A stretch of 64,000 nucleotides of DNA from Guptibacillus hwajinpoensis (GTDB lineage: Bacteria > Bacillota > Bacilli > Bacillales > Bacillaceae_O). The stretch lies in contig JAENYN010000005.1 of assembly GCA_016841765.1 (NCBI GenBank), positions 1 through 64,000 on the forward strand, written 5' to 3'. Positions 2,769-52,751 of the stretch are shown one piece after another (position 1 is the stretch's first letter; every line of letters begins with the position of its first letter). The position numbers and the translations under genes are program-made. The notes beneath the pieces are model-generated. The model saw only the letters and a program-made list of their open reading frames with translations, did no database searches and was not told the origin of the DNA.

Positions 2769-3341
2769 CTATTGTGAGAGCCCCTGCAGCAGGTACATTT
2801 CAAACAACTCGGCAATTTTTTCCTTAGATAGCGGTTCGTGGCCTTTTTCCCAATCAAAAATAAGGGCAATGTAAAGCTTCATCATGACAAATGCCGTTAT
2901 CTCAGGATCACAAGGCCGGATTTCACCTTCAGCAACCGCCATTTCAATTTCACGACTAATAAATTGCACAATCGCATTTTCAAGTTCACTCATGACATCT
3001 TGCACAACAGGTGTACCAATTTCTTTTTCTTCCTGAAATAGTTTGATTGTAAGCTGATGCTGCTTTCTGTATTCCAAAATACTGATAAGAGCCATATGGG
3101 CATTTTCAAAAAAGGACCGATCTGGCTTTATTGCATTCCGGGCAGTATCTTTCATTTCGGCAATCAGCTTGTTGATAATTTCATGAAAAAGCTCTTCTTT
3201 ATTTTTGAAGAAAGTATATATGGTTCCCTTTGCCACATTCGCCATGCCAGCAACCTGGTCCATAGTGGTAGCCTTATAGCCAAACTCGGCGAAGGACTTC
3301 GCCGCCGCATCCAAAATAAGTTGTCTTCGGTCAGTAGCCAT
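2769..3341 (-). CDS. yhgD: TetR/AcrR family repressor YhgD
   Basis: Product of 190 aa. The N-terminal ~50 residues are a TetR-type helix-turn-helix with the usual G-x-x-x-T-T-M-x-x-V-A and G-T-I-Y-x-F-F-x-x-K-E-E-L pattern. The rest is an alpha-helical ligand domain. The start at MATDRRQ is chosen because AGGAGAG lies just upstream; a longer reading frame runs back through the probable operator and is rejected. It sits between hemY and yhgE, as in B. subtilis. The inferred role is control of its own gene and yhgE through the palindromes at 3357 and 2720. Confidence 0.9.
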   Translation of the reverse strand: MATDRRQLILDAAAKSFAEFGYKATTMDQVAGMANVAKGTIYTFFKNKEELFHEIINKLIAEMKDTARNAIKPDRSFFENAHMALISILEYRKQHQLTIKLFQEEKEIGTPVVQDVMSELENAIVQFISREIEMAVAEGEIRPCDPEITAFVMMKLYIALIFDWEKGHEPLSKEKIAELFEMYLLQGLSQ

Positions 3342-3540: not shown

Positions 3541-4185
3541 ATGCTGACCGGATTTTGCGGCGGTCCTGTCGATGGGGCTTCGCGTCGAACTTACCAATTT
3601 TCACGCCAAACAAGTCCCTTTTCACGCCGATTCGAGCGGGTTTCACGCCATTCGCTCCGTTTCACGCCGTTTGGGCCGGTTTTTACGCCATATGGTCGCG
3701 GTTTCACGCCGTTCGGACGTTCCATCAAGCCGTCCGGATTTTTGCGGCGGTCCGGTCGGCAGGTTTCCCGCCGAACTCACTGATTTTCACGCCAAACAAG
3801 TCCCTTTTCACGCCGATTCGAACGGGTTTCGCGCCAAACCTGCACGTTTTCACGCCATTCGTTCCGTTTCACGCCGTTTGGGCCGGTTTTTACGCCATAT
3901 GGTCGCGGTTTCACGCCGTTCGGACGTTCCATCAAGCCGTCCGGATTTTTGCGGCGGTCCGGTCGGCAGGTTTCCCGCCGAACTCACTGATTTTCACGCC
4001 AAACAAGTCCCTTTTCACGCCGATTCGAACGGGTTTCGCGCCAAACCTGCACGTTTTCACGCCATTCGTTCCGTTTCACGCCGTTCGGGCCGGTTTTCAC
4101 GCCATATGGCCGCGGTCTCACGCCGATTGGACGTTGCATCAAACCGACCGGATTTTGCGGCGGTCCAGTCGGCGGGTTTCGCGCC
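3541..4185. repeat. Tandem 207-bp repeat built from TTTCACGCC words
   Basis: About three tandem copies of a 207-bp unit (corresponding points at 3661, 3868 and 4075), preceded by a shorter copy from 3541 and followed by a diverged partial one. Within it the word TTTCACGCC, or a one-base variant (TTTTACGCC, TTTCGCGCC), occurs about twenty times, spaced roughly 15-40 bases apart. The array fills the gap between the hemY terminator and the yhgD promoter. Several frames are open because the repeat lacks stop codons and 207 is divisible by three, but there is no ribosome binding site and the translation is not protein-like. I therefore treat it as non-coding. Confidence 0.85.
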
Positions 4186-5638: not shown

Positions 5639-6581
5639 TGTATTCGCCTTCTTTATCCATTTTCTTCATGATGACATCCGCCATTGCCTCAACGAACAGC
5701 GGATTGGCATTCGGCATTTCCGGTCGGTAATAGGAAGCGCCGAGTGAATCTGTGACAACTTTGCACTCATAATCATTATCATAAAGCACTTCAAGGTGGT
5801 CGGCGACAAAACCGACAGGCGCATAGACAAATGCCCGATATCCTTTTTCTTCATATAATACACGGGTAAGATCCTGCACATCCGGGCCGATCCACGGCTC
5901 TGGCGTATTTCCGGCGCTTTGCCAGCCGTTTTCGTAGTCGTTTATGCCGGCCTGCCCGGCAATCAGCCTTGCCGTTTCTTTCAGCTGTTCCGGATAGGGG
6001 TCACCTGTTGCAAGAATACGTTCCGGCAGGCTGTGCGCACTCACAATCAGCACTGCTTTTTCCCGTTCTTCAGCAGGCATGCTGCTGTAAACATCACGCA
6101 GCCTGTCAGCCCAATACTGGATAAACTTAGGCTCTTCATACCAGCTTTCAACAGAGACGAATTCAGGTCCGCCGTGTTTTTCAGCCGTTTCTTTGACCCG
6201 CCCGTTATATGACTTGATGCTGAAGGTTGAATAGTGCGGCGCAAGGACAATGCTGACCGCTTTTTTGATCCCGTCTTCATTCATTTGTTTAACGGCATCT
6301 TCGATAAAAGGTTCGATATGCTTCAATCCGATATATGCCTTGAACTCTATATCTTCAAAACGTGAGTTCAATTCCTGTTCGAGTTTTGCTGTCTGTTCTT
6401 TCGTTATTTGTGCCAGCGGGGACACGCCGCCGATTGCAGCATACCGGTCTTTCAAATCCTGCAGCTGTTCAGGGGAAGGCTTGCGTCCCCTGCGGATATG
6501 CGTATAATACCGTTCGATATCGCCTTCGCTGTATGGGGTCCCATATGCCATCACCAGAAGGCCGATCGTTTCTTTTTTCAT
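5631..6581 (-). CDS. hemH: Coproporphyrin III ferrochelatase (HemH/CpfC)
   Basis: Product of 316 aa. It inserts iron into coproporphyrin III to give coproheme, which HemQ (not in this window) decarboxylates. His183 and Glu264 fall exactly at the numbers of the B. subtilis catalytic pair, and Tyr13 in MAYGTP is the residue associated with the monomeric coproporphyrin-type enzymes. The start at MKKETIG is chosen because GGAGG lies 9 bases upstream; a longer in-frame start has no such site. hemE ends 16 bases upstream and hemY overlaps the 3' end. Confidence 0.96.
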
Positions 6582-6597
6582 TTTTTCATACCTCCGA

Positions 6598-7647
6598 TTA
6601 GTTGGAAGCTTTTTTTTCAGCAGAATATTCGTGTACAAATCGGGTCAGTTGCTGCAGGGTTTCCACTTTTACTTCCGGAAAGACGCCATGGCCGAGGTTG
6701 AAAATATATCCCGGGTCTTTCATGCCTTCGTCCAGGATTTCTTTCGCTTTTTCTTCTATGACAGGCCATGGGGCCAGCAGCATTGCCGGGTCCAGGTTGC
6801 CCTGCAGCGTTTTGGTCATCCCCATAGAGCGGGCTTCTGAAATCGGGAGGCGCCAGTCAAGACCAACAACATCAAGAGGCAGGTCATGCCAGTCCATCGC
6901 AAGGTGTCCTGCTCCGACGCCAAACATGATGAGTGGGACGCCTTCTTCCTTCAAACTGGAAAAAATCCGCGTCATCACCGGTTTGACATACTTGCGGTAA
7001 TCATCCTTATTCAATGCGCCGACCCATGAATCAAAGATCTGGATTGCCTGGGCCCCGGCGTTGATCTGTGCTTTCACATAATCAATGACCATGTCGCCCA
7101 GTTTTTCCATTAATAAGTGCCAGCCTTCAGGGTCTGTATACATAAATGCTTTCGTTTTGTAATAATTTTTGGAAGGTCCGCCTTCAATCATGTAGCTCGC
7201 CAATGTGAAAGGCGCTCCGCTGAAGCTGATCAGTGGAACGGATAACTGTTCACGGAGCAACTTGATCGTATCGAGGACATATGGCACATCCTGTTCCGGC
7301 TTGATGATGCCGAGCCGTTCAACATCCGCCCGGGAGGAAACCGGGTTGCTGATGACCGGGCCGATTCCCGGCTTGATTTCGACATCGATCCCGATTGCCG
7401 GAAGCGGAGTCATAATGTCTTTATATAGGATTGCCGCGTCCACGCCGTGCTGCTCTACCGGCAGTCTTGTCACATACGCGCACAGCTCTGGCTGGTGGGT
7501 TATTTCAAAAAGGGAATATTTTTTCTTGATTTCACGGTATTCAGGCTGATAACGCCCGGCCTGCCTCATATACCAGACCGGAACATGGTCTGTTTCTGCA
7601 CCCCGGCACGCTTTTAAAAACGCATCATTAAACGGCTTAGTCGTCAT
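6598..7647 (-). CDS. hemE: Uroporphyrinogen decarboxylase
   Basis: Product of 349 aa. It decarboxylates the four acetate side chains of uroporphyrinogen III to give coproporphyrinogen III. The family signature WYMRQAGRY spans residues 25-33 and the catalytic aspartate is probably Asp77 in [17 protein letters not shown] ribosome binding site precedes the ATG. It is the first gene of the hemEHY operon, whose order is the same as in B. subtilis. Confidence 0.97.
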
Positions 7648-8678: not shown

Positions 8679-10859
8679 TCACCAAACTTTTTCCTTCAGC
8701 TCATCAAGCCTGCTGTTTCCCCAACCTGGAGTGAAATACTTCGGAACAGCCTTGTTGGAACGTTCTCCTTCTGAATCGGTCAGCTTGTTATAAGGAACCA
8801 CAGTATATGTTGGCGGGTCAAAGACGTTGACATTTTTGATGGTGAATTTACCTGAACCCGTAACAGTCCCCACTTTCTTTCTGGATCCATCCTTCTCTTC
8901 ATAAACATGATAAACGACCCGGTCATCCTCAGCAGGTGTCCATGACAGTTCAGCCGTAAACAGGCTCAGTGCTTTAAAGGACAAATCCACTGTCAGGTCA
9001 TTGATTTGTGGCAGCTTGATTGGATTTTCAAGATCATCAACGCCTTCCGGCTTCGGAAATGCCTTTTCCTTTTTTATCCCGCCTTCAGACAAAATCCTTT
9101 TGAACAGAGCTGCCGCATAGGCGCTCCCTTCTTTCAAATGCTGATCTTTACTCGTTTTGTCATAGCCCATCCAGAGTGTTCCGGTCACACCTGGCGTATA
9201 TCCGGCGAACCAGGCATCCGCAGAAACACCCTCCACTCCCGAAAAGGAGGTTGTTCCGGTTTTGCCGGCCAGCGCTCCAGCGAATGACCCTTTTCGGGCA
9301 GTCCCTTCCTCGACAACGGCGGAAAGCATGCGTGTCATATACCAAGATGTCTGCTTCGAAAACACTTTCCTTTTTTCCGGGTCCGCCTCCCCGAGCTTTT
9401 CGCCTTCACGATCATAAATTTCCTGGATGAAATACGGTTCAATCGCTTCGCCGCCTGCCGGAAAAGACCGATAAGCGCCGGCAAGCTCGAGCGGCGTGAC
9501 ACCGTCACTCAATCCGCCAAGCGCGATGGCAAGACCCGAATCAGGTGTAGGAATTGCTGCTTTTTCAAGATATTTTTTACCTGTTTCGATGCCGATTTCA
9601 TTCAATGTCCATACCGCCGGCGCATTGTCAGAATGGACGATGGCGTCATACATGGATATTTCACCGTCGTACTGATCATCATAATTTTCCGGTGTGTAAT
9701 CACCATACGTCCTTTTTTCATCAACGAGCATACTGTAAGGCCCGAATTTGTCTTCCTCAATTGCCGGCCCATAAACCGCCAGCGGTTTTAAGGCCGAACC
9801 CGGCTGGCGCTTCACAACTGCACGGTTCAGCCCTTTATGGACATAATTCCGGCCGCCAATAACAGACAAAACGCCGCCTGTTTTATTATCAAGCAAGACA
9901 AAAGCACCCTGCACTTGCTCATCTGTTCCAGGAAAATACTTTTCTTCTTGAAAAAGCTTGTACGCTGCCTTTTGAACTTTTTTATCCATCGGCACTTTAA
10001 TCGAATAACCACCCGTCATCACTTCTTCGTAAGAGAGATGATACTTTTCTTTCGCTTCCTTTAATACCATATCTATATACGAGGTATAAGAAGCATCCTG
10101 CCTTTCTTTCAGCCCTGCAACTGAAACTGTCTTCCCCTGATTGCGCACAGCCTGCTCCGGTTCAATATAACCTTGTTTTTCCATCAGGGACAGGACAAGA
10201 TTGCGCCGCTCTTTGCTTTTGTCAGGATGATTGACAGGCGAATACGTCGCCGGAGCTTTTGGAAGACCGGCCAGCAATGCTCCTTCATCAACGGTCAGTT
10301 CCGAAACATCCTTATCAAAATATAGCTTGGCGGCAGACTGGATTCCATAAGCGCCGTGCCCGAAATAAATTTGGTTCAAATACATTTCCAGCAATTTATC
10401 TTTACTGTAATTCCGCTCAAGATTAATGGCAATGACTGCTTCCTTTGTTTTTCGCAGCAATGTTTTTTCATGGGAGAGAAACACATTTTTGGCAAGCTGC
10501 TGGGTTATCGTACTGCCGCCCTCCACCTTTTGGCCGGCGAGAATATCCTTATACAGCGCCCTTATAATCGACTGGGCGTCAATGCCCGGATGATCATAAA
10601 ACCTGGAATCTTCAACTGCAATGAAGGCATGCTGAACATGTTTCGGAATATCATTAATATCAACCAGTTCCCGATTGACAGAATAGATTTTTGTAATGCG
10701 GTCCCCTTTTGCGTCAACAATTTCTGAAGTGGAGTCCATGACAAGCTTTTTATCGTCAATCACGTACTCCCCGGCCAAAATGATAATAATGTAACCGGCC
10801 AATCCCAGTAAAAGGGCTGACGCAGCAAACACAGCACCGATTAAGACTTTTCTCATCAT
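8679..10859 (-). CDS. pbpF: Class A penicillin-binding protein (PbpF-like)
   Basis: Product of 726 aa, a bifunctional peptidoglycan synthase anchored by one N-terminal segment (about residues 5-30). The glycosyltransferase domain (GT51) shows EDSRFYDHPGID with catalytic Glu83 and GGSTITQQ at 114-121. The transpeptidase domain has S355-A-L-K358, SDN at 410-412 and KTGT at 533-536. The C-terminus carries a fibronectin-III-like segment (about residues 625-705). Its place beside hemE matches pbpF (PBP2c) of B. subtilis, a sporulation/germination-linked class A enzyme. AAAGGAG lies upstream of the double ATG. Confidence 0.92.
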   Translation of the reverse strand: MMRKVLIGAVFAASALLLGLAGYIIIILAGEYVIDDKKLVMDSTSEIVDAKGDRITKIYSVNRELVDINDIPKHVQHAFIAVEDSRFYDHPGIDAQSIIRALYKDILAGQKVEGGSTITQQLAKNVFLSHEKTLLRKTKEAVIAINLERNYSKDKLLEMYLNQIYFGHGAYGIQSAAKLYFDKDVSELTVDEGALLAGLPKAPATYSPVNHPDKSKERRNLVLSLMEKQGYIEPEQAVRNQGKTVSVAGLKERQDASYTSYIDMVLKEAKEKYHLSYEEVMTGGYSIKVPMDKKVQKAAYKLFQEEKYFPGTDEQVQGAFVLLDNKTGGVLSVIGGRNYVHKGLNRAVVKRQPGSALKPLAVYGPAIEEDKFGPYSMLVDEKRTYGDYTPENYDDQYDGEISMYDAIVHSDNAPAVWTLNEIGIETGKKYLEKAAIPTPDSGLAIALGGLSDGVTPLELAGAYRSFPAGGEAIEPYFIQEIYDREGEKLGEADPEKRKVFSKQTSWYMTRMLSAVVEEGTARKGSFAGALAGKTGTTSFSGVEGVSADAWFAGYTPGVTGTLWMGYDKTSKDQHLKEGSAYAAALFKRILSEGGIKKEKAFPKPEGVDDLENPIKLPQINDLTVDLSFKALSLFTAELSWTPAEDDRVVYHVYEEKDGSRKKVGTVTGSGKFTIKNVNVFDPPTYTVVPYNKLTDSEGERSNKAVPKYFTPGWGNSRLDELKEKVW

Positions 10860-11873: not shown

Positions 11874-12521
11874 TCAAGTGCTTCTTGTAATATTATGCCG
11901 GTTGGCATACACTGCAGCCTGGGTCCTGTCCTGGACTTCAAGCTTGCTCAAAATATGGCTTACGTGCGTCTTAACGGTTTTGATTCCAATGAACAGTTCG
12001 TCGCAAATTTCCTGATTTGTCATTCCTTCCCCGAGACATTGCAAGACTTCAAGCTCCCTTTTGGTTAGTTCTTCGTGAAGCCTTTTTTGCCGGGGGGAAC
12101 GGAAACGGTTCATCATCGTGCTAGCCGCCCGCGCCTCAATAACCGATTCACCGTCAACAGCTTTTTTTATCGCATCCGTAATATTTTCTGCCTTAGCCGT
12201 TTTCAGCAAATAACTAAATGCACCTGCTTCAATTGCCGGGATAACCTGATCTTCGTCATAGAAGCTTGTAATGATGATGATTTTGCATTCAGGGGCAAAA
12301 GCCATTATTTCTTTTGTAGCCTCAACTCCCGTCCCGTTTTCCATAAGCAAATCCATCAGCACAACATCCGGCTGTTTCTCTTTAACAAGCTGAACCGCTT
12401 CCCTGCCGCTTGATCCTTCACCAGCAATTTCAAAATCCGGTTCTGTCATCAAATAAGAAAGCAAACCTTTCCTGACCATTTCATGATCGTCGACGACCAC
12501 TATGCGAACGGACTCCCCCAT
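11874..12521 (-). CDS. liaR: LiaR/VraR-type response regulator
   Basis: Product of 215 aa: a receiver domain (Asp11/Asp12 acidic pocket, phosphoacceptor Asp57, conserved T and K switch residues) followed by a LuxR/NarL-type helix-turn-helix (LTKRELEVLQCLGEGMTNQEI...). This is the LiaR/VraR architecture. Such regulators respond through LiaS to cell-envelope stress, for example lipid II-binding antibiotics. The reading frame overlaps the liaS 3' end by 41 bp. The target liaIH genes are not next to it here, so its targets must lie elsewhere or differ. Confidence 0.88.
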   Translation of the reverse strand: MGESVRIVVVDDHEMVRKGLLSYLMTEPDFEIAGEGSSGREAVQLVKEKQPDVVLMDLLMENGTGVEATKEIMAFAPECKIIIITSFYDEDQVIPAIEAGAFSYLLKTAKAENITDAIKKAVDGESVIEARAASTMMNRFRSPRQKRLHEELTKRELEVLQCLGEGMTNQEICDELFIGIKTVKTHVSHILSKLEVQDRTQAAVYANRHNITRST

Positions 12522-13566
12522 TTTCCTTCTCCTCCTTTACCGGTACCCGAATCGTTAAATAGGTTCCTTCCCCTTTTTGTGATTTAAGGCCGATTGCCGC
12601 CCCTATCTCCTCCGCCCTTTCCTGCATCGTTTTCAATCCATAAGAAGTTTTTCGTTCATCCTGTAAATCAAACCCTTTTCCATCATCACGTATATATATG
12701 TATAAATGGTTTTTCTGTAAAGATCCTTCCAATTTGACCATACTGGCTTCAGCATGCCGAAGAACATTCGAAAGGAATTCCTGGATGATTCTGAATAAAT
12801 GGTCCTCAACTCCTCGGGAAAGATCAGGCGATTTTCCGAGACTCACCTGGAAATCAATTGTGCATTTCGCCCTCAACTCCCCAATCAGTTTTTCAATTCC
12901 GTCCCATAATGTATCTCCGCTCAAGTGGACCGGCCTCAGGTGCAGCATAAGAGCCCTCATTTCCACCTGGGCCTGTGCAGCCATATCCGAAATCTGCTGC
13001 AACTGTTCTTTTGCCTTCCGCTCATCCCTGTCAAAAAGCCGAATAGCGGCAGATGACATCATACTTAAAGCAAATAGCTGCTGACTGACCGCATCATGGA
13101 GATCCCGGGCGAGCCGCTGCCGTTCTTCAATTGCGGCTGCTTTGTGCGCTTCTTCTGCAAGATCAGTTTTTTCATCCGCCAGTCGCTGCAGCGATTTCAC
13201 CTGGCTATCGATTCTTTCTGCAAGATCATTTAAATCATTCGACATGCGCCCGATTTCATCGTTCCCTTCCTGATCAATGCGTCTTGACAGATTCCCTCTT
13301 GAAAGGACTGCAATAAATGTGGACAATTTCTCCAAACGATCTTTCAGCGGCTGGCTGCTTATGTATCCCGCATAGATGCCTGACACCAGGGCAGCAGTAA
13401 ATACCAAACCCGTCAGCCACAAAATGGCTGAAAGCCCAAGTGGATTGGCCGGCATGAACAGTAAAGCGAACTGCAGACCCACAAAAAATAAGATGCCGGT
13501 CGCCAATGCGGCAAATATATGCATACGCAAAATATGATAGCGGATACTGGAAATTTTCTTCAGCAT
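12481..13566 (-). CDS. liaS: LiaS/VraS-type sensor histidine kinase
   Basis: Product of 361 aa with two N-terminal membrane segments (about residues 15-38 and 46-68) and only a short extracytoplasmic loop, as in intramembrane-sensing kinases. A HAMP segment (about 70-125), a HisKA_3 domain with RDLHDAVSQQ (phosphoacceptor His157) and a C-terminal ATPase domain with DDGKGFDL follow. Start MLKKISS is chosen over a longer frame that overlaps liaF. The partner regulator overlaps its 3' end, and LiaF, its usual inhibitor, is upstream. Confidence 0.88.
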   Translation of the reverse strand: MLKKISSIRYHILRMHIFAALATGILFFVGLQFALLFMPANPLGLSAILWLTGLVFTAALVSGIYAGYISSQPLKDRLEKLSTFIAVLSRGNLSRRIDQEGNDEIGRMSNDLNDLAERIDSQVKSLQRLADEKTDLAEEAHKAAAIEERQRLARDLHDAVSQQLFALSMMSSAAIRLFDRDERKAKEQLQQISDMAAQAQVEMRALMLHLRPVHLSGDTLWDGIEKLIGELRAKCTIDFQVSLGKSPDLSRGVEDHLFRIIQEFLSNVLRHAEASMVKLEGSLQKNHLYIYIRDDGKGFDLQDERKTSYGLKTMQERAEEIGAAIGLKSQKGEGTYLTIRVPVKEEKENGGVRSHSGRRRS

Positions 13567-17617: not shown

Positions 17618-18022
17618 GAATTGGACCTGGTATGTGCACTGAACCTTCATTCAGTGCAGATAATCAATTGAATTGGACCTGGTATGCGCACTGAACCATC
17701 ATTCAGTGCAGATAATCGATTGAATTGGACCTGGTATGCGCACTGAACCATCATTCAGTGCAGATAATCGATTGAATTGGACCTGGTATGTGCACTGAAT
17801 CTCCATTCAGTGCAGATAATCAGTTGAATTGGACCTGGTATGCGCACTGAACCATCATTCAGTGCGCTTAATCAGCTAAGTAAGCTTGGTATGTGCACTG
17901 AATCTCCATTCAGTGCACATAATCAGTTGAATTGGGCCTGGTATGCGCACTGAACCTTCATTCAGTGCGCTTAATCAGCTAAGTAAGCTTGGTATGCGCA
18001 CTGAACCCTCATTCAGTACCCT
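17618..18022. repeat. Eight-unit hairpin array, 51-52 bp period
   Basis: Eight tandem units with the word ACTGAA at 17638, 17690, 17742, 17794, 17846, 17898, 17949 and 18000. Each unit is an inverted repeat of the form GCACTGAA-N6-TTCAGTGC (about 26 bp) plus a spacer such as ATAATCAGTTGAATTGGACC. Outer stem bases vary (TGTGC or TGCGC), and in the units at 17846, 17898 and 17949 the arms match. No open frame or cas gene accompanies it. It occupies the gap between convergent yhfA and the PfpI gene. The part between 17400 and 17600 shows nothing recognised. Confidence 0.92.
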
Positions 18023-19266: not shown

Positions 19267-19342
19267 TATGGAAATTGAAGGAAAGGTAGACTGTGCCTCT
19301 AAACAGAGGTGGATCCACATTACAGGCATGACAGACTGCTTC

Positions 19343-19440
19343 TCGTGCCTATATTCAGAGCTGAACACACATTATAGGCACACCACACTGTTTCCCGTGC
19401 CTATATTCAAAACAGATCTTACATTGACGGCTGTATAGCG
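19343..19440. repeat. GGCAC/GTGCC hairpin array with 52-bp period
   Basis: Two full units and a partial third, starting with ATTACAGGCA (19350), ATTATAGGCA and ATTGACGGC, spaced exactly 52 bp. Each carries an inverted repeat AGGCAY...CGTGCCTATA. The sequence differs from the array at 17.6 kb but the period and design (hairpin plus spacer) are the same. It lies between convergent genes. A related array is at 43.3 kb. Confidence 0.8.
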
Positions 19441-26162: not shown

Positions 26163-26412
26163 AAATGCGCAAGGCGCCTGCTTAGCGGCGTACGCATAAG
26201 CGGGGGTACCCGCAGGAAGGCGGCCTTTCCTTCCGGAGGGGATCACCGCTTATGACGATAGCCGCTGGCGCCTGGAGCTGGATGAACAAAAGCGCAGGGC
26301 GCCCGCTTAGCGGCGTACGCATAAGCGGGGGTACCCGCAGGAAGGTGATCTTTCCTTCCGGAGGGGATCACCGCTTATGACAATAGCCGCTGGCGCCTGG
26401 AGCTGGATGACT
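26163..26412. repeat. Two tandem copies of a 125-bp element
   Basis: Units 26163-26287 and 26288-26412 differ at only a few bases. Each starts with GCGCARGGCGCC.GCTTAGCGGCG and ends with GCCGCTGGCGCCTGGAGCTGGATGA, so the ends are partly complementary. Internal palindromes surround GGTACC and GGAAGG...CCTTCC. It resembles intergenic elements common in Bacillus genomes. It lies between convergent hit and the YGSN gene. A deletion derivative is at 43142. Confidence 0.88.
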
Positions 26413-34819: not shown

Positions 34820-36370
34820 CTATTCTTTTCCGTGATTTTTACCGCTATTCTTTCCTTCAGCTTTTTTCTGTTCGTGCTCTTTCTTTTCTTCAGCCTTTTT
34901 CAATGCTTCCGCTTTCTTTTCTTCGGCCTTTTTCACGGCTTCAGCTTTCTTCTCTTCCGCTTTTTTCAATGCCTCAGCTTTCTTTTCTTCTGCTTTTTTC
35001 AACGCTTCGGCTTTCTTTTCTTCCGCTTTCTTTCGATTTTCGGCAGCTTTTTCGGCTTTCTTTTCTTCTTTTACTGCAGTCATTGCAGCTGCAGCAACTT
35101 CAGTCTCTTCTTTGGCTTCTTCTGTCTCTTCAGTTGCCTCTTCTTCTCCTTCAGAAACCTCTGTTTCTTCATCATATTCTACATCACCGGCCGGGACTGT
35201 TTCTTCCGATTCTTCGGTGTCAGCGATCACATCCGCCGCTTCTTCCTCTTCAAGGGAGACACCGAGTGCTTCCAGCTTCATTAGAAGTTTTTCGGCTTCG
35301 GTTTCATCACCTTTGGCCAGTGCTTTCTCGTATTTGGCAAGCAGTTTTTCTGCCTTTCTTTCCATCCTTTCGGCGCGCTTTTCATACCCTTTTTTCACTG
35401 CATTCATTTCAGAAGGGTGCAGATTAAGGGCCTGGGCGATTTCACCGAATCCCATGTTGCCCTCTGTCACCATTGCCGCCACTTCATCTAATTCGGTGCC
35501 GGAAGCTTCTGCGAGTGCAAACACATGTGAAATCTGGCCATAACCGAGACCAAGTTCACGAAGCTCCAGAACCTTTTCAGGGTCAAGTCCTTTGACAACG
35601 TTTGCGGTGATCATCGCTTTTTCCACTTCTTCTTTTACCAGTTCATCTTCTTCCAGCAGTTCATCATCAACATCCGTCAATTCTTCAAGCTGTTCTACCA
35701 GTCCATCGATTTCTTCCTTTTCTTCCTCTGTCAATCCTGCAAACATTTCTTCAATGGATGCGGATACTTCCTCAAGCTTTGTTGTGTAGTCTGTGACTAC
35801 TGCTTCCAGCAGGGACTCCCACTCTTCCCCGTCAATTTCACCTGCAGCCGCTTTTTCTTTCAACACCTGCAATTCTGCCATTCTCTCTTCTGTAATCGAT
35901 GTGAGCAGAAGGGCTTTTTCCTGTTCATTGAAGGCAAAGAAAAGTTCAACTTTCTCAAAAAGTTTATCGAAAAAATAAAGGGTGCTTTCCGGTGTCAGGC
36001 CGGCCGCTTCTTCCTCAAGTCCGCTGCTTTCTTCCGTTTCTCCCTCTGTTCCGGTCTCTTCCTCGTCAGCTTCTTCAGAAACTTCTCCGTCTGTTGCGCC
36101 TTCTTCCATTTCTGTTTCTTCCTCGTATGTAGATTCTTCTTCAGTTGATTCTTCCACGGCATTACCATCCGTTTCTTCTGTACCTGGTTCAGTCGTTGTT
36201 TCCCCGGAATCATCAACTGTTGTTTCGTTTTCTTCCACAATGACTGTATCCTGTTCTATTTCAGTCGCTTCGCCATTCCCTTCAGCAAATGCCGGTGCCC
36301 CAGCACTGAAAATCAAGCCGGATATGACCCCCGCCGTCATCAACTTATACGCAATTTTCTTCACTTTCAT
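34820..36370 (-). CDS. Secreted DUF5667-type protein with acidic and Lys/Glu-rich repeats
   Basis: Product of 516 aa. Residues 1-29 form a signal peptide (cleavage after AFA). Residues 30-122 are almost entirely Glu/Thr/Asp/Ser. LTPESTLYFFDKLFEKVELFF (about 125-145) starts a DUF5667-like helical domain reaching about 235, then a segment with two related motifs (GLGYGQISHVFALAEASG and MGFGEIAQALNLHPSE). The C-terminal ~90 residues are Lys/Glu/Ala repeats of an 11-residue unit (K-K-A-E-E-K-K-A-E-A-L). No sortase motif or membrane anchor is seen, so it is probably released or held electrostatically in the wall. Function unknown. GGGGAGG precedes the ATG. Confidence 0.8.
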   Translation of the reverse strand: MKVKKIAYKLMTAGVISGLIFSAGAPAFAEGNGEATEIEQDTVIVEENETTVDDSGETTTEPGTEETDGNAVEESTEEESTYEEETEMEEGATDGEVSEEADEEETGTEGETEESSGLEEEAAGLTPESTLYFFDKLFEKVELFFAFNEQEKALLLTSITEERMAELQVLKEKAAAGEIDGEEWESLLEAVVTDYTTKLEEVSASIEEMFAGLTEEEKEEIDGLVEQLEELTDVDDELLEEDELVKEEVEKAMITANVVKGLDPEKVLELRELGLGYGQISHVFALAEASGTELDEVAAMVTEGNMGFGEIAQALNLHPSEMNAVKKGYEKRAERMERKAEKLLAKYEKALAKGDETEAEKLLMKLEALGVSLEEEEAADVIADTEESEETVPAGDVEYDEETEVSEGEEEATEETEEAKEETEVAAAAMTAVKEEKKAEKAAENRKKAEEKKAEALKKAEEKKAEALKKAEEKKAEAVKKAEEKKAEALKKAEEKKEHEQKKAEGKNSGKNHGKE

Positions 36371-43309: not shown

Positions 43310-43460
43310 GGTACGGTAGTTCCCGTGCCTATAATTAAAGAGGAGCTGCCATTACAGGCACGGCAGTCTGGTCCTCGTGCCTATAATCAGACCAGGTCCT
43401 GCATTACAGGCACGGCAGAAGGGTCTTCGTGCTTATAATCAGTTAAATGAACAAATTACA
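43310..43460. repeat. GGCACG/CGTGCC hairpin array with 52-bp period
   Basis: Units begin ATTACAGGCACGG twice, exactly 52 bp apart, with a partial unit before (CGGTAGTTCCCGTGCC) and a transition after into ATTACAAGCACTGAAT, which resembles the 17.6-kb family. The hairpins pair AGGCACG with CGTGCCT. Related to 19343-19440. Confidence 0.82.
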
Positions 43461-50906: not shown

Positions 50907-51046
50907 AATTGTCCCTCCTTATCTCCTTCTATTATAACGTTTGCACAAACATTCAGGTTTCACTTTTTTTGCAATAAATAGGAGGAAAACAAGAAATGAC
51001 TCCGAATATGTTTATTAGGCGAAATTCGACAAAGGGGATGTAAAAG

Positions 51047-51241
51047 ATGAAGACCTATACACTCACCGTTTTTGATGAAAGCGGCGAAAAGCTGCTCGAA
51101 GAAACATTCGAAGCACCAAATGATGACGATGCAAAACAAATTGGAGGCAACCGCATTGAAGATGAAGGGTATGGAAAACGGAACTACCGCGTCACCTCTT
51201 CCGCCGGCGAGCTTGTCATGTTCAACTCCTCGACACGCTAA
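51047..51241 (+). CDS. yhzD: YhzD-like small protein
   Basis: Product of 64 aa, MKTYTLTVFDESGEKLLEETFEAPNDDDAKQIGGNRIEDEG..., matching the YhzD family by pattern and by position near yhaQ. No catalytic motif. AAAGGGG precedes the ATG and a strong terminator follows. Confidence 0.87.
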   Translation: MKTYTLTVFDESGEKLLEETFEAPNDDDAKQIGGNRIEDEGYGKRNYRVTSSAGELVMFNSSTR

Positions 51242-51336: not shown

Positions 51337-51370
51337 AAAAAGACCAAACCTCGTGTTTTGGTCTTTTTTT
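51337..51370 (+). terminator. Terminator of yhzD
   Basis: AAAAAGACCAAAC-CTCGT-GTTTTGGTCTTTTTTT. Confidence 0.92.
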
Positions 51371-51544: not shown

Positions 51545-51885
51545 CGGCCACTGAACTACTATTCAGTGCCTGTTGTTAGGCGACCGGGGACGATTATGGG
51601 AGACTGAATCTTTATTCAGTGCTTGTAATTACGCGACCGGCGGGATTATGTGCACTGAATCTTTATTCAGTGCACATAATCAGGAGAATGCGATGAGTAG
51701 GCGCACTGAATCTTCATTCAGTGCAGATAATCAGATGAATTAGAGAATTATCCGCACTGACTCTCCATCCAGGGCCTAAAATTAGAAGAACGAGAAGATT
51801 ATAGGCACTGAATCTTCAAACAGTGCCTATATTTTAACAAAGTACATCAATATAAGCACTGAACCCTCATTCAATGCCTATATTT
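51545..51885. repeat. Seven-unit hairpin array, 51-bp period
   Basis: ACTGAA-type words lie at 51550, 51603, 51654, 51705, 51756, 51807 and 51858; after the first step of 53 all steps are 51 bp. The unit at 51654 has 16-bp perfect arms, ATTATGTGCACTGAAT and its complement. The unit at 51807 has TATAGGCACTG paired with CAGTGCCTATA, showing changes on both arms. It lies between convergent yhzD and yhaR. Same family as 17618-18022. Bases 51371-51544 show nothing recognised. Confidence 0.92.
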
Positions 51886-51962: not shown

Positions 51963-52751
51963 TCAGCGCCCTTTATACTCAGGTTTGCGCTTACCCAAAA
52001 AAGCGGTGATCCCTTCCTTGTGATCCTCTGTTCTGCGCATCTCCAGCTGCTTCGTTTTTTCCATTCCAAGCACACGGTCAAGCCTTTCAGTATTAAGGTC
52101 AGCCATGATTTGCTTTGTCGCGATCATCGCCAGCACCGGCCGGCTCAGCCAATCTTCCGCTTTTGACCTGGCTGCAGCCAGGACATCTTCACCGGCAATC
52201 TCATCAATTAAGCCTGTTTCGAGTGCTTCGGCTGCTTGCATGTTTTTGCCTTCCCATATGATGCGTTTCGCTTTTTCGGGACCAAGCCGTTTTTCCATAA
52301 AAAAGTGGCCGCCGCCATCCGGTATTAAGCCGATATTGATGAAATTCATAGCGAATTTCGCCTGCGGGCTCGCAATCAGATAATCCGCAGCGAGGGCAAA
52401 GCTGAAGCCCAGCCCGGCTGCAGGGCCGTGAACCGCACTGATGACCAGTTTCGGCATTGTGTAAAGCGACCTGATCATTTCCCCGATTTTGTCCATGACA
52501 GGGTTAAACTGGGACTCATCCAATTCAGTCAGCATCGTCCGGATGTCACCGCCTGCGGAAAATCCCCGCCCGCTCCCTGTGATGATGAGAACATCTTCGT
52601 TGCGGCCCCTGATTTCGCGCATCGCTTCATTTAATTCTTGGATCATCTCGACATCCATCGCATTCAGTACATCCGGCCGGTTCAGTTCAAGATAGAGAAC
52701 CCTGCCTTCTTTTTGAAGGTTGATCGTTTTCATTTCGCTGAGAAGCTCCAT
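51963..52751 (-). CDS. yhaR: Enoyl-CoA hydratase/isomerase family protein YhaR
   Basis: Product of 262 aa, crotonase fold. The oxyanion-hole segments are GSGRGFSAGGDI and HGPAAGLGFSFALAADY. In the usual second catalytic Glu region the sequence is IGLIPDGGGHFF, with Asp in place of one Glu, so isomerase rather than hydratase activity is possible. It ends the beta-oxidation cluster. AGGAGTG precedes the ATG. Position after yhaQ matches B. subtilis yhaR. Confidence 0.85.
   Translation of the reverse strand: MELLSEMKTINLQKEGRVLYLELNRPDVLNAMDVEMIQELNEAMREIRGRNEDVLIITGSGRGFSAGGDIRTMLTELDESQFNPVMDKIGEMIRSLYTMPKLVISAVHGPAAGLGFSFALAADYLIASPQAKFAMNFINIGLIPDGGGHFFMEKRLGPEKAKRIIWEGKNMQAAEALETGLIDEIAGEDVLAAARSKAEDWLSRPVLAMIATKQIMADLNTERLDRVLGMEKTKQLEMRRTEDHKEGITAFLGKRKPEYKGR

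What the first reader, a model, noticed from the sequence alone, without database searches (positions are those of the whole stretch)
51545..51885. Hairpin array with two-sided (compensatory) changes and exact 51-bp period
Seven units spaced 53, then 51 five times, each with a palindrome of GCACTGAA...TTCAGTGC type. The unit at 51654 has 16-bp perfect arms. The unit at 51807 changes TGTGCAC to TAGGCAC on the left and GTGCACA to GTGCCTA on the right, keeping pairing. Paired changes mean the palindrome itself is under constraint, either as an RNA hairpin or as a dimer-binding site. A period of 51-52 bp is close to five helical turns, which would place every palindrome on the same DNA face. I know of no described Bacillus element with this design.
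Basis: partly seen in the sequence, partly recalled or inferred. Interest (0 to 1): 0.72.

Follow-up and report, generated by a model that had tools for sequence, protein, structure and literature searches.

The report
Spaced palindrome arrays after gene ends
This isolated Bacillus-like lineage carries dozens of tandem arrays of one short DNA palindrome, repeated every 51-52 bases just past the ends of genes and conserved although the sequence between copies is scrambled, which most simply suggests regularly spaced docking sites for an unidentified DNA-binding protein.

Summary
In detail: seven units at window 51548-51877, spacings 53 then 51 five times. They belong to a dispersed family of about 200 units (up to 2 mismatches) in the genome and 90 in the only other held member of its GTDB family. 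No array was found in 247 other genomes of the order. The unit is ATTA-n3-GCACTGAA-n6-TTCAGTGC-n3-TAAT plus a free linker. Core, loop length (6) and linker length (29 or 30) are fixed, while central linker sequence is random between arrays. That pattern argues for selection on a phased dyad site.

Arrays avoid divergent (promoter) gaps, are enriched between convergent genes, and usually lie beyond the terminator. Terminal units are degenerate, copy number differs between species, and three of three arrays tested without bias are absent at the orthologous site, this one included.

Best reading: phased sites for a dimeric DNA-binding protein, working like BIME or sopC arrays but failing REP membership tests. 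No protein is identified. New variant of a known kind.

The parts
51548..51877 (.). The array: seven dyad units, spacing 53, 51, 51, 51, 51, 51
51548..51569 (.). Unit 1 core, CCACTGAA CTACTA TTCAGTGC (degenerate terminal unit)
   Evidence: terminal units are degenerate family-wide
51601..51622 (.). Unit 2 core, AGACTGAA TCTTTA TTCAGTGC
51652..51673 (.). Unit 3 core, perfect GCACTGAA-N6-TTCAGTGC; extended arms 51644-51660/51665-51681, 17 bp perfect
51703..51724 (.). Unit 4 core, perfect
51754..51775 (.). Unit 5 core, degenerate (GCACTGAC TCTCCA TCCAGGGC)
51805..51826 (.).
51856..51877 (.). Unit 7 core (GCACTGAA CCCTCA TTCAATGC)
51337..51370 (+). Intrinsic terminator of the left (+) gene, lying between that gene and the array
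   Evidence: (12-bp arms AAAAAGACCAAA/TTTGGTCTTTTT)
51041..51241 (+). Small left flanking gene reading toward the array (conserved in G001)
   Evidence: sequence shows an ORF from ATG 51048
51963..52751 (-). Right flanking gene, enoyl-CoA hydratase-like (family named from knowledge), reading toward the array; 89% identical protein in G001, where no array follows it
17636..18019 (.). Second array of the same family, eight units, period 51-52; ortholog in G001 (L073) has three
43325..43413 (.). Sister-form units GTGCCTATAAT-N15-ATTACAGGCAC, period 52
19316..19416 (.). Sister-form units, period 52

Best explanation
Each unit is a DNA site for a homodimeric protein: two half-sites TTCAGTGC-n3-TAAT in inverted orientation around 6 bp. 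Units are repeated at 51-52 bp, close to five helical turns, so neighbouring dimers can contact each other or bend and wrap the DNA together. The arrays sit past gene ends and terminators, mostly where two genes converge, and would act there as architectural, topological or insulating elements. Copy number and linkers turn over by unequal exchange or slippage, as in satellite DNA, while the protein-facing positions and the spacing are kept by selection. Shown: the anatomy, conservation, spacing, placement, turnover and lineage restriction. Inferred: that a protein binds, that it is a dimer, and what binding achieves.
For: Core and flanking TA steps are near-invariant across arrays while the 13 central linker bases are at chance identity (27.6%). 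Loop is 6 nt in 226 of 228 short-loop cases, and linker is 29 (99) or 30 (42) nt with nothing else except two N-gap artefacts. Outside the arrays non-coding DNA has about 0.12 indels per substitution, so saturated linkers should have changed length. Bases -2 and -3 beyond the core are free and do not pair, yet the TA beyond them is fixed, as for groove contacts rather than a helix. 23 of 43 arrays between convergent genes (odds ratio 5.0, p 2.6e-6), one in a divergent gap (odds ratio 0.05). In 11 of 17 codirectional cases a terminator lies between gene and array (1.45 expected), against 2 beyond the array. Same unit and period in both species, kept in orthologous arrays whose linkers have diverged.
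Against: No binding protein was identified and none was sought by proteome comparison. Plus or minus 1 bp changes are common, so long-range rotational phase is not kept. Arrays are absent at three of three orthologous loci tested without bias, so no single array is essential. The 6-bp centre is directional and its purine strand follows the upstream gene (p 0.0125, 18 arrays), which a symmetric dimer site does not predict.
Confidence: 0.45

Rival explanations
1. Selfish or neutral satellite: the repeats spread and homogenise by slippage, unequal exchange or an unknown mobile process, with no host function. The core is conserved because the spreading machinery recognises it.
For: Terminal units are degenerate and inner ones homogeneous (1.71 against 0.48 mismatches, p 3e-11), and two-unit higher-order repeats exist. 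Presence/absence and copy-number differences between the two species. Dispersed over many contigs and restricted to one lineage.
Against: Fixed linker length with random linker sequence between arrays is not expected of plain slippage. Strong preference for gene ends can reflect mere tolerance. No cognate mobile enzyme: the Y1_Tnp genes are present in nearly all array-free relatives and have no units beside them.
Confidence: 0.25
2. RNA hairpin arrays in 3' ends or read-through transcripts, acting in mRNA stability, termination or protein binding.
For: The minus-strand RNA folds strongly (z -9.45). On the purine strand the loop reads T-R-N-N-G-R, and U.G closing outnumbers C.A 34 to 12. In codirectional arrays the purine strand is the mRNA strand (p 0.0125) and does not follow replication direction (rho 0.13, p 0.39). 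Pair -1 covaries.
Against: Any palindrome folds. No covariation in the core and none at -2 and -3. Hairpins do not need 51-52 nt spacing. Terminators usually precede the array. No loop-linker pairing. Arrays lack a T-tract. No Rfam family.
Confidence: 0.17
3. Site-specific recombination sites: 8-bp inverted arms around a 6-bp asymmetric overlap, used by a tyrosine recombinase, with recombination between units changing copy number.
For: Loop length exactly 6, and loop positions 2 and 5 avoid complementarity (1.5 against 11.9 of 41), so the centre is almost never symmetric. Loops are alike within an array. Copy number varies.
Against: No recombinase linked to arrays and none was sought. Loops often differ between neighbouring units, which would block exchange. 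Tandem 51-bp sites are too close for excision by circle formation.
Confidence: 0.06

Closest known systems
REP/PU elements and BIMEs (RAYT-linked GTAG and CGTC families; PMC3733652)
   Same: Short palindromes of similar stem length, clustered, dispersed, extragenic, mostly between convergent or codirectional genes
   Different: No GTAG or CGTC tag, no associated RAYT, head-to-tail tandem units at one fixed 51-52 bp period rather than head-head or tail-tail dimers; Firmicutes are not among the phyla listed for those families in PMC3733652
sopC-type centromere arrays (F plasmid, 43-bp direct repeats each with an inverted repeat bound by a ParB-type protein; from knowledge, not tested here)
   Same: Tandem units of near-integral helical turns, each with one short palindrome, conserved dyad and free linker
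   Different: About 35-40 chromosomal loci at gene ends, rather than one plasmid partition locus
bcr1 and other stem-loop repeats of Bacilli (Bant-1, Bhal-1; PMC2267715)
   Same: Intergenic stem-loop repeats restricted to one lineage
   Different: Those are 72-167 bp elements; the paper's passages read here describe no fixed-period arrays
Alpha-satellite DNA with CENP-B boxes (from knowledge)
   Same: Tandem units turning over by unequal exchange, with a conserved protein site inside otherwise drifting units and higher-order repeats
   Different: Bacterial, short arrays (up to 18 units), many loci

Membership tests
REP/BIME (GTAG or CGTC super-families) | Tetranucleotide tag GTAG or CGTC next to the stem | tested here: not met
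   Consensus of 41 arrays is nnATTAnAnGCACTGAATnnTnATTCAGTGCnTnTAATnn
REP/BIME (GTAG or CGTC super-families) | Linked RAYT (Y1 transposase flanked by REPs) | tested here: not met
   Two PF01797 matches in G000, but 37 of 41 genomes have them and all but two of those lack arrays; no units within about 3 kb
REP/BIME (GTAG or CGTC super-families) | Extragenic, near 3' ends, depleted between divergent genes | tested here: met
   23 convergent, 18 codirectional, 1 divergent of 43
CRISPR array | Near-identical repeats with unique spacers | tested here: not met
   Linkers are related within an array and loops vary
CRISPR array | cas genes nearby | not tested
   Not searched
Intrinsic terminator | Hairpin followed by a T-tract | tested here: not met
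   Units are followed by n3-TAAT, no T-tract; separate terminators usually precede the array
Known structured RNA family (Rfam 15) | Score above a family's gathering threshold | tested here: not met
   No match at gathering; best sub-threshold match 19.7 bits against 80
Protein-binding centromere-like array (sopC type) | Bound by a ParB-type or other dimeric protein | not testable with these tools
   Needs binding assays
Satellite-like tandem repeat | Homogeneous interior, degenerate ends, copy-number variation | tested here: met

The most novel reading that the evidence does not exclude
A lineage-specific chromosomal protein loads on about 35-40 phased dyad arrays placed past gene ends, forming a dispersed, satellite-like set of nucleoprotein anchors or insulators between convergent transcription units, a chromosome-organising layer not described in Bacilli.
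Probability: 0.2. Interest if true: 0.8.

Novelty: new variant of a known kind. Interest (0 to 1): 0.5.

Why it matters
If the arrays are protein sites, this lineage has a chromosome-wide set of strictly spaced nucleoprotein sites at gene ends, and the sequence itself gives the bait (one 51-bp unit) and the key test (shift the spacing by half a turn). Even if they are neutral satellites, fixed spacing with randomised linkers is an unusual and testable mode of repeat evolution in bacteria, and a clean lineage-specific counterpart to REP/BIME elements outside the phyla where those were catalogued.

Tried and rejected
RNA stem under covariation: only pair -1 covaries. Loop-linker pseudoknot: complementarity at chance (3.22 against 3.12). 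Arrays as replacement terminators: terminators generally present before the array, and no link between loop polarity and the gene lacking one. Orientation by replication strand: no correlation with GC skew or coding majority. RAYT-driven REP. Mobile spread by plasmid or phage: no match in either collection. Homologues elsewhere in the order: only isolated singletons of at most 32 bits; the eight fetched have no tandem copies beside them, and several are terminators or coding sequence. The first scan of genome contigs with a two-unit pattern found nothing. Coding function: period 51 keeps frames open and makes spurious ORFs, but 51 and 52 are mixed within arrays.

Full report
What is there. Seven copies of GCACTGAA-N6-TTCAGTGC lie at 51548-51877, with spacings 53 and then 51 five times. 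With up to 3 mismatches the pattern occurs 19 times in the window against 2.9 in shuffles. A second array of the family is at 17636-18019. A sister form with the palindrome GTGCCTATAAT-N15-ATTAYAGGCAC and a 52-bp period is at 43325 and 19316. The two forms can occur in one array in the same register (L083).

A dispersed, lineage-restricted family. The own genome (G000, 4.27 Mb, 91 contigs) has 199 core matches with up to 2 mismatches, and the only other held genome of its GTDB family (G001) has 90. The reversed control gives none. None of the 59 other genomes searched had a match with up to 1 mismatch. A covariance model built from 41 arrays found runs only in G000 and G001 among 249 genomes of the order. 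Elsewhere there were single hits of at most 32 bits; the eight that were fetched showed no tandem copies beside them, and several were terminators or coding sequence. Plasmid and phage collections gave nothing. The closest named proteins for a window gene are only about 70-73% identical, from Cytobacillus, Bacillus and relatives, so the organism is an isolated Bacillaceae-like lineage; the own or very near records may be left out of that collection.

Anatomy. Array-weighted composition gives TTCAGTGC-n-Y-n-TA-W-T as the half-site. The fixed parts are the 8-bp arms, the 6-nt loop (226 cases against 2 with 7 nt), the TA three bases outside each arm (34-35 of 35 arrays), and the 29- or 30-nt linker (99 and 42 exact cases; the two 43s are assembly-gap artefacts). 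Free parts are the three bases between arm and TA, and the linker centre, whose identity between arrays is 27.6%, that is chance. Non-coding DNA outside arrays shows about 0.12 gap openings per substitution between the two species. Linkers that have lost all sequence similarity should therefore have changed length, and they have not. This is the strongest evidence for constraint on spacing. The inference assumes linkers descend from common ancestors and were not each built anew at fixed length.

Is it a covarying stem? Sampling one unit per array and dealing the partner bases among arrays, the pair directly outside the core covaries (21.1 pairs against 13.2, sd 2.9). Pairs -2 and -3 do not, and the core pairs are invariant or vary on one side (core variation is limited because units were found by the core pattern). 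The named-structure count agrees: 83.1% paired against 81.3% shuffled, four pairs with two-sided change against 5.1 shuffled, although more cells have a two-sided change than in shuffles (33 against 23). Loop positions 2 and 5 avoid complementarity (1.5 against 11.9 of 41). The strong predicted RNA fold (z -9.45) follows from the palindrome and is not independent evidence.

Placement. With larger flanks, 43 distinct arrays lie 23 between convergent genes, 18 between codirectional genes, one in a divergent gap and one at a contig edge. Array-free gaps of 100 bp or more were 68, 173 and 108 convergent, codirectional and divergent. Genes were taken as long ORFs, not curated, so single assignments may be wrong. 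In codirectional cases a predicted terminator lies between gene and array in 11 of 17 (1.45 expected by shuffling) and beyond the array in 2. Arrays therefore mostly lie outside the main transcript.

Polarity. The 6-nt centre is directional: on its purine strand it reads about T-R-N-N-G-R. In codirectional arrays this strand is the strand of the upstream gene's mRNA (p 0.0125, 18 arrays), and it does not follow replication direction as read from GC skew (rho 0.13, p 0.39). Loop and linker purine content are anticorrelated (rho -0.41, p 0.008). These were found while exploring, without correction for the number of tests, and remain unexplained.

Evolution. Terminal units are degenerate and inner ones homogeneous, as in satellites shaped by unequal exchange. 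Orthologous arrays exist in both species with different copy number, for example 4 against 8 units at L060/L103, with changed linkers and kept cores. The window array itself is absent in G001, where the same convergent genes are separated by a short gap with a terminator. Two further long arrays chosen without knowledge of G001 (14 and 18 units) are also absent at the orthologous gene. The shared loci were found through G001 arrays, so the shared fraction is not estimated.

Interpretation. Fixed dyad, fixed TA, free bases between, fixed spacing near five turns and placement outside transcripts fit best with phased sites for a dimeric DNA-binding protein (confidence 0.45). What binds and why is inferred. 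BIMEs (bound by gyrase and IHF in E. coli, cited in PMC2267715) and sopC are the nearest in working principle. Membership in REP/BIME fails on tag and on RAYT. The neutral satellite rival is serious, because no array is indispensable.

Limits. About 85% of the units in G000 were read in context (169 of 199). Only two genomes of the family are held. No expression or binding data exist here.

Noticed in passing
L132 (G018) 1-324, 334-1228, 5771-6081, 9679-10139: A different genus of the order has four intergenic tandem arrays of period 53 in a 20-kb sample, with other sequences (GTGTCCCGCAAGAGCGTCTCGCGGACCAC..., GGTATACCAGAGGAAGCCGCCGCGGTATAG...); dyad symmetry significant in only one. Intergenic arrays of about 50-60 bp may be commoner in Bacillales.
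   Followed up: partly
L131 (G017) 2969-3232 and 12521-13154: Tandem arrays of period 59 built on GGTGCCAGACCCC in another family of the order
   Followed up: partly
L138 (G027) 6542-6650: Alternating GTACCAGGTAC-like inverted sites, period 50, in an intergenic gap of another genus
   Followed up: no
window 3620-4185; L062 about 2470-2560: Another dispersed repeat, TTTCACGCC about every 20 bp within a 207-bp tandem in the window, also seen beside an array at L062
   Followed up: no
41 arrays in G000 and G001: Loop positions 2 and 5 almost never complementary, and the purine strand of the loop follows the upstream gene; loop and linker purine content anticorrelated
   Followed up: partly
window 26163-26410 and 34842-35162: A 125-bp tandem duplication and 33-bp and 15-21-bp tandem repeats
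   Followed up: no
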